64,000 nt of DNA, from assembly GCA_019449635.1 (NCBI GenBank), contig JAGRPI010000012.1, positions 1-64,000 of the forward strand, written 5' to 3'. Positions 58,521 through 60,938 of this stretch are shown here, piece by piece. The notes below the pieces were generated by a model that did not search any database, was not told the DNA's origin, and was given only the letters and a program-made list of their open reading frames with translations. Source of the stretch: Candidatus Ferrigenium bremense. Lineage in GTDB: Bacteria > Pseudomonadota > Gammaproteobacteria > Burkholderiales > Gallionellaceae. The position numbers and the translations under genes were made by a program. The first letter of the stretch is position 1. Each line of letters begins with the position of its first letter.

Positions 58521-60938
58521 TTATTCCAATGCCGCAGAGCTGTCACGCATAGTCAGGGAAAGGGCTTCCGGGCTGATGCGCAAGGCCGCTCCCGTCGGGC
58601 ATGACCTGACGCAGGCTGGTCCCGATACATTATCCTTGCACAAGTCGCACTTGATTGCCTTCTTGGGCAAATCATCATCAGGAAGGCGATTTTTTTCGTC
58701 ATGATTGGCGCCCCCCAGCAGTGCTTGCCATAAACCCGGTTTTTTGAACTTTGGATCAACAGCCACCATCTGGATAGCATCGTAAGGGCAGTTGTTTTTG
58801 CAATTGCTGCATCCAATGCAGCCGTCCGCAATGAAAACCTCACCGTTGACCGACCTGTGAATAACATTAGGCGGGCAATCCTGCATGCAGTATGGATGCT
58901 CGCAATGGCGGCATGAAGTGGGCAGATGAGTGTGGCCGTGGGTAGGACCGGCTTCGCGGTCAAAAAGCGAGATGCCTCCGTGCGTATTCGCACAGGCAGT
59001 TTCACAATTGTTGCAACGGATGCAAAGCGAATAATCGATCAATAATACGTCGGTTGCTTCGCCAACACCCTGCTGAATGAGAAATGTAAACAAATTGCCC
59101 GGTTTGCCCTGAGGCTCGATCATTTTTTTGTCATGGGCATTTTCGCGATAGCGTGCAGCAAGAAGGTCGCGCAGGTCCGTATTACGCTCCAGCGCAGCGA
59201 TAACCACAGGGGCTTTGAGCAGGACGACCTCAGTTGCTGAAGCGGCACGTGCTGTCTTTGAGCGCGGCTTATCCGAGATAAGTGCCATTTCGCCGAAATA
59301 ATTACCGGTAATGACATATGACAACACATCCTCTTTCCCACCCGTCATCTGGGAGATGATCACCGAGCCGCGCCGGATCAGATATAGCCCGTCGGCTTTG
59401 TCGCCCTGATGGAACAAGACATCCCCGGCTTTATATCGTCTGATCGTTGCGCCCTGCAACAAATAGTTCAATTCACTTTCCGGGAGGGTATTGGTCAGGC
59501 AGTTGCGAACTACCCGTTTCATCGATACCTCGTCGAGCTTCCGGCGTACAGACTCTACGGAATTAATCAACTTAAGCATCGAGCGACGCGGCGTTTCGAT
59601 AAGCACACAATCCGTAATTGCCTTAATCGTGGCTGATCTGCGGCGCCCGGATATCAGCCCCATCTCGCCAAAGAAGTTGCCTGCCTTGGTCTGGAAATAG
59701 ATTTCGCTGCCATCCTTGGCTTTAACAAAAACGGCGAGTTCCCCTTCCAGAATCGAGAAAAAGCTGCTGGTGTAATCATCGTAATTGAAAATGGTTTCAT
59801 TCGGCCTGGGAGTCAAAACGCAGCTTTCGAGCAGCAGTTCACGCAGCTGCAATGCGGTAAGGTCGGCCAATATAGGCGCATTACGCCGGATGATGGCGAG
59901 GCCCTCGTTGACAGAACATGAGGCATTGAAACTGGAGATTTTTTGCTTGAGGAGCGGTTCATCCGCCGCCACTACCGGATTTCCGAGGATATATTCGATC
60001 ACCTCGTAACCATGGTTCAACGCCTGCTTGATAAGCGGGCAGCCGCCGAGCGCGCCGATAATATAGAGGCCGGGTACATTCGACTCGTATTGTTCCGATA
60101 ACTCCGGTGCCGAGCTTATGTCGCTATTGGGAAACTTGACACCAAAACTTTCCAGCAGTTTGCGCGGTGGACTGGCGCCAAGACGCGCAATGACGCGATG
60201 ACAATTAATGATCTCGACGCCTTCGGAAGTTTTTGCAACAACTCTCAGCAAGAAACCGTTTTCCGTATCAGCGTCGATATGGTCGATGCCTGCACTGACC
60301 CGGGGTTCAATCCGGCCCGCCTTGATGGCAGCTTGCAGCATGAGGAAGTTCCCTTCCTTGCAGCGGCTAAATTCTTCCTCGCGATTGATGAGGATCACCC
60401 GATTCTGCTGTGCGAGTGCGAGCGCATTTTCCACACCGGCATCCCCGCCCCCCACCACCACGATAGTTTCGTCTTTGAACTCTTCCGGATCATCGAGCTG
60501 ATATTGCACATTCGGGAGGTCTTCACCCTGCACGCCGAGCTTGTTAATGTTGCCCTGGAGCCCGATTGCAAGCACTACAAACTCGGCATTTATGGTTTGC
60601 TCGGAAGACAGCGTGACATGGAAGTCGCCGCGCTCGCCCTTTATCCCGTCAACCTGTGCGCCCAAGCGCAGGTTGACCTTATATCTCTGAATGTCCTCGT
60701 GCCATGTTTCAAGAATGTTTTCACGAGTCCCCGCTGCAAATGCCATCGGGCTGCGGAGCGGCAGCACGGCAGGCTCCGCCATGACAAGCTTGCCCTTCTG
60801 ATATTTATGGATGGTATTGGCGGGATGTTGCCCTGCTTCCAGCAGAACATGCGAAATTCCCAGCTCGGCAGCATGCGTAGCCGCAGAAAGGCCGGCTGGC
60901 CCCGCACCAATGATGGCAATCTTGAATTTTTCAGTCAT
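58521..60938 (-). CDS. FAD/NAD(P) oxidoreductase fused to two cyclic-nucleotide-binding domains and a four-[4Fe-4S] ferredoxin module
   Basis: IAIIGAGPAGLSAATHAAELG, IVVVGGGDAGVENALALA; two FGEM(G/A)LIS cNMP motifs; CIRCNNCETAC, CRHCEHPYCMQDC, CIGCSNCKNNC, CDLCKDNVSGPACVRSC. Confidence 0.93.
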   Translation of the reverse strand: MTEKFKIAIIGAGPAGLSAATHAAELGISHVLLEAGQHPANTIHKYQKGKLVMAEPAVLPLRSPMAFAAGTRENILETWHEDIQRYKVNLRLGAQVDGIKGERGDFHVTLSSEQTINAEFVVLAIGLQGNINKLGVQGEDLPNVQYQLDDPEEFKDETIVVVGGGDAGVENALALAQQNRVILINREEEFSRCKEGNFLMLQAAIKAGRIEPRVSAGIDHIDADTENGFLLRVVAKTSEGVEIINCHRVIARLGASPPRKLLESFGVKFPNSDISSAPELSEQYESNVPGLYIIGALGGCPLIKQALNHGYEVIEYILGNPVVAADEPLLKQKISSFNASCSVNEGLAIIRRNAPILADLTALQLRELLLESCVLTPRPNETIFNYDDYTSSFFSILEGELAVFVKAKDGSEIYFQTKAGNFFGEMGLISGRRRSATIKAITDCVLIETPRRSMLKLINSVESVRRKLDEVSMKRVVRNCLTNTLPESELNYLLQGATIRRYKAGDVLFHQGDKADGLYLIRRGSVIISQMTGGKEDVLSYVITGNYFGEMALISDKPRSKTARAASATEVVLLKAPVVIAALERNTDLRDLLAARYRENAHDKKMIEPQGKPGNLFTFLIQQGVGEATDVLLIDYSLCIRCNNCETACANTHGGISLFDREAGPTHGHTHLPTSCRHCEHPYCMQDCPPNVIHRSVNGEVFIADGCIGCSNCKNNCPYDAIQMVAVDPKFKKPGLWQALLGGANHDEKNRLPDDDLPKKAIKCDLCKDNVSGPACVRSCPTGAALRISPEALSLTMRDSSAALE

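What the first reader, a model, noticed from the sequence alone, without database searches (positions are those of the whole stretch)
58521..60938. Oxidoreductase, cyclic-nucleotide sensors and polyferredoxin in one polypeptide
Order seen: TrxB/YpdA-like FAD module, two tandem cNMP domains (FGEMGLISGRRRSAT; FGEMALISDKPRSKT), then a PsrB/DmsB-like four-cluster ferredoxin module. cNMP domains usually regulate transcription factors, channels or kinases. Here they sit between the flavin and FeS modules, where a conformational change could gate electron transfer.
Basis: partly seen in the sequence, partly recalled or inferred. Interest (0 to 1): 0.8.

Follow-up and report, generated by a model that had tools for sequence, protein, structure and literature searches.

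The report
Cyclic-nucleotide-gated electron-export enzyme (predicted)
This bacterial gene encodes one protein that joins an NAD(P)H-oxidising flavin unit, two cyclic-nucleotide sensors and four iron-sulfur clusters, and it travels with a predicted membrane haem protein and a ten-haem cytochrome, so it may be a wire for moving electrons out of the cell that is switched by cAMP or cGMP; nothing has been tested at the bench.

Summary
Window 58521-60938(-) encodes an 805-aa cytosolic protein: YpdA/thioredoxin-reductase-like flavoprotein without redox cysteines, two cNMP-binding domains, and a DmsB/HycB-like four-[4Fe-4S] module. It is not a fusion artefact: 99 homologues (44-93% identity; Gallionellaceae, Methylotenera, Duganella, Lysobacter, Magnetococcales and others) keep the order. 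It heads a three-gene operon with a predicted di-haem b membrane protein (two WX3HX13H) and a one-TM, FHA-headed ten-haem cytochrome c; in Magnetococcales the first two genes are fused. In many Beta/Gammaproteobacteria the same genes sit in a seven-gene cluster with a porin-like barrel, a 10-haem LVIVD cytochrome and a 4-haem cytochrome, closely resembling the putative 'PCC4' porin-cytochrome system (He et al. 2017), whose text mentions an Fe-S gene but no cyclic-nucleotide domain. Best explanation: a NOX/ferric-reductase-like transmembrane electron exporter (NAD(P)H to FAD to FeS to haem b to haem c), allosterically gated by a cyclic nucleotide. Electron path moderately supported; gating, ligand and direction inferred. 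New variant of a known kind.

The parts
58521..60938 (-). FCF: 805-aa FAD / tandem CNB / 4x[4Fe-4S] protein (whole gene)
60012..60926 (-). FAD/NAD(P)-binding module (aa 5-309), YpdA/TrxR-like FNR, no CxxC
   Evidence: Pfam; PDB sequence; Foldseek; no CxxC 0/99
59499..59822 (-). CNB-A with its C-terminal helices (aa 373-480)
   Evidence: Pfam; model; PDB PKG/PKA-R matches
59628..59675 (-). CNB-A phosphate-binding cassette FFGEMGLISGRRRSAT (E425, R434, with unusual R432-R433)
   Evidence: E425, R433, R434 99/99, R432 97/99
59169..59480 (-). CNB-B (aa 487-590)
   Evidence: Pfam; model
59253..59300 (-). CNB-B phosphate-binding cassette YFGEMALISDKPRSKT (E550, R559)
   Evidence: E550 99/99, R559 93/99
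58569..59045 (-). four-cluster ferredoxin module (aa 632-790), DmsB/HycB-like
   Evidence: 16 Cys 99/99; HycB3/HycB4 matches; NCBIfam DmsB, HydN, FdhB below cut-offs
57563..58489 (-). MEMB: 308-aa inner-membrane protein, predicted di-haem cytochrome b (W109x3H113x13H127, W282x3H286x13H300, SGxxG 150-154); the listed GTG start at 58546 is probably too early, ATG at 58489 fits the homologues
   Evidence: searches (four His invariant 28/28; 63/67 both WX3HX13H, 65/67 both HX13H), weak PF01292 in 26/28; motif of PCC3/PCC4 IMP in PMC5566968
55883..57556 (-). FHAC: FHA-like domain (aa ~20-96), one TM (143-161), ten haem-c motifs (aa 199-542: nine CxxCH, one CQQSGCH)
   Evidence: ten motifs 58/58
61218..61637 (+). 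DUF1924 mono-haem cytochrome, divergent; recurrent neighbour in Gallionella-like loci
54630..55655 (+). copper nitrite reductase nirK, convergent with FHAC; only in the close relatives
   Evidence: NCBIfam TIGR02376 over cut-off
53851..54183 (-). small mono-haem cytochrome c
   Evidence: Pfam
30053..32377 (+). CHASE2-class III nucleotide cyclase (possible source of the ligand)
   Evidence: Pfam PF05226 + PF00211

Best explanation
The protein is the cytosolic, cyclic-nucleotide-regulated head of a transmembrane electron-transfer complex. It takes hydride from NAD(P)H on FAD, passes electrons to its chain of four [4Fe-4S] clusters, then to the two b haems of the membrane partner, then to the ten c haems of the FHA-headed cytochrome, and so to periplasmic acceptors (or, where the porin and further multihaem cytochromes are present, outside the cell). 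Binding of a cyclic nucleotide to the tandem CNB domains, which lie between the flavin and FeS modules, changes their relative position and opens or closes the flavin-to-FeS step. In outline it works like a NADPH oxidase or ferric reductase (cytosolic NAD(P)H-FAD feeding a two-HX13H haem-b membrane domain) with a cNMP switch. Shown here: architecture, pocket residues, cluster ligands, haem motifs, operon, fusion, seven-gene cluster. Inferred: two b haems, complex formation, outward direction (downhill and helped by the membrane potential), ligand identity, gating.
For: Full architecture conserved in 99 homologues, with all 16 FeS Cys, FAD/NAD glycines and both Glu/Arg pockets kept. Pockets align with those of Plasmodium PKG in register. 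Gene order FCF-MEMB-FHAC in about 60 loci across Beta-, Gamma- and Alphaproteobacteria and Magnetococcales. FCF and MEMB fused in one frame in two Magnetococcales MAGs. MEMB His pairs and WX3HX13H, weak cytochrome b561 and ferric-reductase Pfam signals. FHAC ten haem motifs 58/58 plus one TM. Where MEMB is not beside FCF it is elsewhere in the genome (8/8 such genomes), and in five of them at the other end of a seven-gene cluster MEMB-FHAC-HbpS-porin-C10-C4-FCF. No CxxC, so the flavin must pass electrons on by another route. Own genome has about ten class III cyclase domains.
Against: No biochemistry. The MEMB model has no significant PDB fold match and its Pfam hits are below the curated cut-offs, so the b haems rest on motifs. 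The model does not resolve how the FeS module sits against the flavin. The cyclase association (15/16 against 216/353 genomes, Fisher p 0.005) is not corrected for phylogeny, and one carrier (G265) shows no class III cyclase at the threshold used. The window's genome has no match to the porin, C10 or C4 (control), so the final acceptor here is unknown.
Confidence: 0.5

Rival explanations
1. Same complex, run inward: periplasmic or extracellular electrons (for example from Fe(II)) are used to reduce NAD(P)+ in the cytosol, with the cyclic nucleotide licensing the step.
For: The window comes from a Gallionellaceae (closest named relatives are Gallionella and Ca. Ferrigenium MAGs), a family of iron oxidisers; similar PCC4 clusters were proposed for electron uptake (PMC5566968).
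Against: Neutrophilic Fe(II) is far less reducing than NAD(P)H and inward electron movement works against the membrane potential, so no driving force is evident in this complex; many carriers are typical heterotrophs or methylotrophs (Duganella, Lysobacter, Methylotenera). Redox thermodynamics here are general knowledge, not measured.
Confidence: 0.2
2. Same redox chain, but the CNB domains are not a cyclic-nucleotide switch: they are a structural hinge or dimerisation element, or bind another anionic ligand.
For: CNB-A has an extra, almost invariant Arg-Arg (R432 97/99, R433 99/99) where kinases have x-Pro before the phosphate-binding Arg; CNB-B lost its Arg in 6/99; CNB folds without cNMP binding exist (general knowledge).
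Against: Glu and Arg of the cassettes are kept at 93-99 of 99; the cassette of CNB-A is much better conserved than the rest of the domain; best PDB matches are true cGMP/cAMP-binding kinases.
Confidence: 0.25
3. MEMB couples to the quinone pool (as proposed for PCC4) and FCF is an NAD(P)H:quinone or cytochrome reductase branch rather than the obligatory entry of the chain.
For: He et al. 2017 draw the IMP of PCC3/PCC4 as quinone-active (PMC5566968).
Against: FCF-MEMB fusion and strict pairing suggest direct electron transfer between the two; no quinone site was identified here.
Confidence: 0.25
4. A thiol-disulfide reductase or ordinary thioredoxin reductase with decorative domains.
For: The FAD module is nearest YpdA/TrxR in sequence and fold.
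Against: No CxxC in residues 1-330 in any of 99 homologues; YpdA model score 128 bits against a cut-off of 340; constant FeS module and cytochrome partners.
Confidence: 0.03

Closest known systems
PCC4 putative porin-cytochrome cluster (He et al. 2017, PMC5566968)
   Same: Porin-like barrel, 4- and 10-haem cytochromes, an inner-membrane protein with SGxxG and two WX3HX13H, and in Subgroup II a pfam13247 Fe-S gene upstream of it; in Oceanospirillum beijerinckii the Fe-S gene and IMP are annotated as one gene, like the fusion found here in Magnetococcales.
   Different: He et al. describe the gene only as Fe-S containing (the word 'cyclic' does not occur in the main text) and draw electrons going to quinone. 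Haem numbers reported are 4, 5 and 10; here 10, 10 and 4. The window's genome has the three-gene core only. Identity with their clusters was not tested by sequence.
Forkhead-associated ten-haem protein cluster 403 of Gallionellaceae (PMC10734462, Table 1)
   Same: FHA-headed protein with ten haem motifs, in 27 of 87 iron-oxidising genomes: almost certainly FHAC.
   Different: Listed as a cytochrome only; no operon, no FCF, no function given.
NADPH oxidase / ferric reductase (FRD, pfam01794)
   Same: NAD(P)H-FAD in the cytosol feeding a membrane domain with two HX13H haem-b pairs.
   Different: Unrelated flavin fold (TrxR-like here), FeS relay and CNB switch inserted, haem c as exit; MEMB hits PF01794 only weakly in 6 of 28.
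DmsB/FdnH/HycB four-cluster ferredoxin subunits
   Same: 16-Cys four-[4Fe-4S] module.
   Different: Fused to flavin and CNB modules; partner is MEMB, not NrfD/DmsC.
YpdA/Bdr and TrxR-like ferredoxin-NADP reductases
   Same: Fold and sequence of residues 5-309.
   Different: No redox dithiol; electrons presumably go to the fused FeS module.

Membership tests
cNMP-binding (CNB) domain, ligand-competent | Phosphate-binding cassette with Glu and Arg at canonical spacing | tested here: met
   E425/R434 99/99; E550 99/99, R559 93/99; Pfam PF00027 136 bits; in-register alignment with PKG
cNMP-binding (CNB) domain, ligand-competent | Binds a cyclic nucleotide | not testable with these tools
   needs ITC or similar
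Thioredoxin/bacillithiol disulfide reductase (TrxB, YpdA) | TrxB: redox CxxC in the FAD/NADPH module; YpdA: model score over cut-off | tested here: not met
   no CxxC in residues 1-330, 0/99; TIGR04018 128 of 340 bits, TIGR01292 67 of 343
DmsB-like four-cluster ferredoxin | 16 Cys in four clusters | tested here: met
   16/16 Cys in 99/99
DmsB-like four-cluster ferredoxin | Score over a specific family cut-off (DmsB, HydN, FdhB) | tested here: not met
   46 of 214, 51 of 260, 41 of 335 bits
PCC3/PCC4-type inner-membrane protein (IMP) | Five TM helices, SGxxG on TM4, two WX3HX13H on TM3 and TM5 | tested here: met
   motifs in the window protein and in 63/67 homologues (both WX3HX13H); TM count only by a simple hydropathy scan of homologues (3-5)
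PCC4 cluster | Porin plus periplasmic multihaem cytochromes plus IMP in one cluster | tested here: not met
   window's genome: no match to porin, C10 or C4; met in relatives L160-L164 and several gamma loci, though the porin assignment rests on length and an aromatic C-terminus
FHA domain, phosphothreonine-binding | GR plus Ser of the SxxH motif | tested here: inconclusive
   G32 57/58 and R33 56/58 kept; Ser position mostly Ala/Asn, Ser in 9/58
Prokaryotic di-haem cytochrome b (PF01292/PF01794) | Score over the Pfam cut-off | tested here: not met
   best 4e-6 in a homologue; 14 of 30.1 bits for the window protein

The most novel reading that the evidence does not exclude
A widespread class of transmembrane (and in many species cell-surface) electron conduits whose electron entry from NAD(P)H is switched directly and allosterically by a cyclic nucleotide, so that cAMP or cGMP controls respiration-like electron flow post-translationally rather than through transcription.
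Probability: 0.4. Interest if true: 0.85.

Novelty: new variant of a known kind. Interest (0 to 1): 0.62.

Why it matters
Cyclic nucleotides are known in bacteria mainly as signals to transcription factors. A direct cNMP switch inside a redox enzyme would link second-messenger signalling to electron flow. If the protein is the head of PCC4-like conduits, it would also change their model: the cytosolic partner would be NAD(P)H-linked rather than only quinone-linked, and the conduit would be regulated. The family is in cultured, tractable genera (Methylotenera, Duganella, Lysobacter), so this can be tested.

Tried and rejected
Assembly or chance fusion: rejected by 99 homologues in many taxa. 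Thioredoxin/bacillithiol reductase: rejected by absence of CxxC. MEMB as a known fold: Foldseek against the PDB gave nothing significant, and the profile search hit only ATP synthase b coiled coil. FCF without membrane partner in Burkholderiales: first seen as a second class of loci, then rejected, since MEMB is present in all 8 such genomes tested and about 11 kb away in the same cluster in the five examined. FHA domain as a phosphothreonine switch: weakened, since the key Ser is mostly lost. Cyclase next to FCF: seen in 5 loci, about what cyclase density alone could give, not used as evidence. The supplement of He et al. (domain drawings of PCC4 redox genes) could not be read, so the CNB domains may be drawn there.

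Full report
What is there. The open frame at 58521-60938(-) gives an 805-residue protein, here called FCF. Pfam places a pyridine-nucleotide-disulfide oxidoreductase module at residues 5-309, two cNMP_binding domains and a four-cluster ferredoxin at the C-terminus. The FAD glycine motif begins at residue 11, leaving no room for a signal peptide, and a simple hydropathy scan finds no TM segment in nearly all homologues, so the protein is most likely cytosolic, where cyclic nucleotides are.

Conservation. Full-length homologues were found in 10 of 60 relatives plus one copy cut by a contig end, in 15 of the 368 other genomes drawn from the class, one of them only partly matched by that search, and in most of the best 80 of at least 578 related loci among species representatives (not every one of those 578 need be a full FCF). 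In an alignment of 99 (44-93% identity to the window), all 16 iron-sulfur cysteines are invariant, as are E425, R433 and R434 of the first cassette and E550 of the second; R559 of the second is kept in 93. E425-R434 has the spacing of PKA-type cassettes, and both cassettes align in register with Plasmodium PKG. The first cassette is much better conserved than the rest of its domain (0.61 against 1.66 bits; rank 3 of 75 windows), the second moderately so (1.04 against 1.47; rank 19 of 72). An oddity is the Arg-Arg-Arg of the first cassette, which leaves room for an unusual ligand.

The flavin module. It matches YpdA/Bdr and TrxR-like ferredoxin-NADP reductases in sequence and in the predicted fold, but no homologue has a CxxC in residues 1-330, and the family models for TrxB and YpdA are far from their cut-offs. 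So the flavin must hand electrons to something other than a dithiol; the fused FeS module is the obvious acceptor. Arg186 (97/99) and Arg192 (70/99) sit near where TrxR has its NADPH-phosphate arginines, which favours NADPH, untested.

Partners. Thirty-one bases downstream of FCF begins a 308-residue membrane protein (MEMB; ATG at 58489), and six bases after that a 557-residue cytochrome (FHAC). MEMB has four invariant histidines in two H-x13-H pairs (28/28); both pairs are in 65 of 67 homologues, in the WX3HX13H form in 63. This, with SGxxG, is the signature that He et al. (PMC5566968) gave for the inner-membrane proteins of PCC3/PCC4, read by them as two b haems. Pfam gives only weak b561-like signals (26 of 28 members), and the predicted structure (pLDDT 87) matches no solved fold. 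FHAC has an FHA-like head, one TM and ten haem motifs conserved in 58/58, but the FHA serine is mostly lost. Cluster 403 of PMC10734462 ('Forkhead-associated protein', ten motifs, 27 of 87 iron-oxidising Gallionellaceae) is almost certainly FHAC.

Synteny. FCF-MEMB-FHAC stand together in about 60 loci. In two Magnetococcales MAGs FCF and MEMB are one polypeptide. A group of Burkholderiales seemed to lack MEMB next to FCF, but a genome-wide search found MEMB in all eight such genomes tested, and the five examined show one seven-gene cluster MEMB-FHAC-HbpS-like-porin-like-10-haem LVIVD cytochrome-4-haem cytochrome-FCF. Gammaproteobacterial loci have FCF-MEMB-FHAC followed by the HbpS-like, porin-like and 10-haem genes. 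The window's genome gave no match to the porin, C10 or C4; the same porin query found its target in a control genome, and Methylotenera oryzisoli also lacks it. The window thus carries the three-gene core, with nirK, a DUF1924 cytochrome and a small cytochrome c as neighbours in its close relatives.

Mechanism. The anatomy reads as a wire: NAD(P)H, FAD, four FeS clusters, two b haems, ten c haems, then the periplasm, and in the larger clusters a barrel and more haems across the outer membrane. Transfer outward is downhill and assisted by the membrane potential, and many carriers are heterotrophs or methylotrophs, so I favour export over uptake. The CNB pair lies between the flavin and FeS modules, so a ligand-driven change could bring them together or apart. 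This gating is inference: the model does not fix the FeS position, and an arrangement across a dimer is equally possible.

Signalling context. The genome has about ten class III cyclase domains and six Ser/Thr kinases. The window itself has a CHASE2-cyclase, a CHASE2-kinase, a PP2C phosphatase, an FHA protein, a phosphodiesterase-like protein and a kinase fused to a CNB domain. Class III cyclases are in 15 of 16 FCF genomes and 216 of 353 others (Fisher p 0.005), not corrected for phylogeny.

Known or new. The gene is probably the pfam13247 gene of PCC4 Subgroup II in He et al. 2017, and FHAC is in a published table, so the system is not wholly unseen. What I did not find in the searched library is the cyclic-nucleotide domains, the flavin module or the NAD(P)H link. 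I file it as a new variant of a known kind (multihaem transmembrane electron conduit) and keep membership of PCC4 open, because haem counts differ (10/10/4 against 4/5/10), this genome has no porin match, and no direct sequence comparison was possible.

Noticed in passing
window 41808-43232 (+): Ser/Thr protein kinase with a C-terminal cNMP_binding domain (Pfam 1e-14): a possible bacterial cyclic-nucleotide-dependent kinase. Its cassette has two extra residues between Glu and Arg.
   Followed up: no
window 25565-33262 (+): Signalling block: CHASE2-Ser/Thr kinase, PP2C phosphatase, FHA protein, CHASE2-class III cyclase, metallo-beta-lactamase with class II cAMP phosphodiesterase similarity, all in one direction.
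   Followed up: partly
aa 432-434 of FCF, window 59637-59645: Almost invariant Arg-Arg-Arg in the first cassette in place of the usual x-Pro-Arg; the ligand may not be plain cAMP.
   Followed up: partly
L042, L043, L047 (G172, G289): A 47-48% identity subgroup whose second CNB cassette lost its Arg (Gln in 3 of 99); one genome, G172, has two FCF copies.
   Followed up: no
L061, L069, L075, L078, L079, L114: MAG records titled Mycobacteriaceae, Bordetella parapertussis or Klebsiella pneumoniae carry FCF genes; the titles are probably wrong.
   Followed up: no
window 61218-62115 (+): DUF1924 mono-haem cytochrome and a 121-aa PAS protein, divergent from the operon and kept in the closest relatives.
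   Followed up: partly
window 55704-55735: Strong palindromic terminator-like hairpin between the converging nirK and FHAC genes.
   Followed up: no
L112, L093: FCF genes in a Thiotrichales and a Thiomargarita MAG without recognisable MEMB or FHAC in the stretch held.
   Followed up: no
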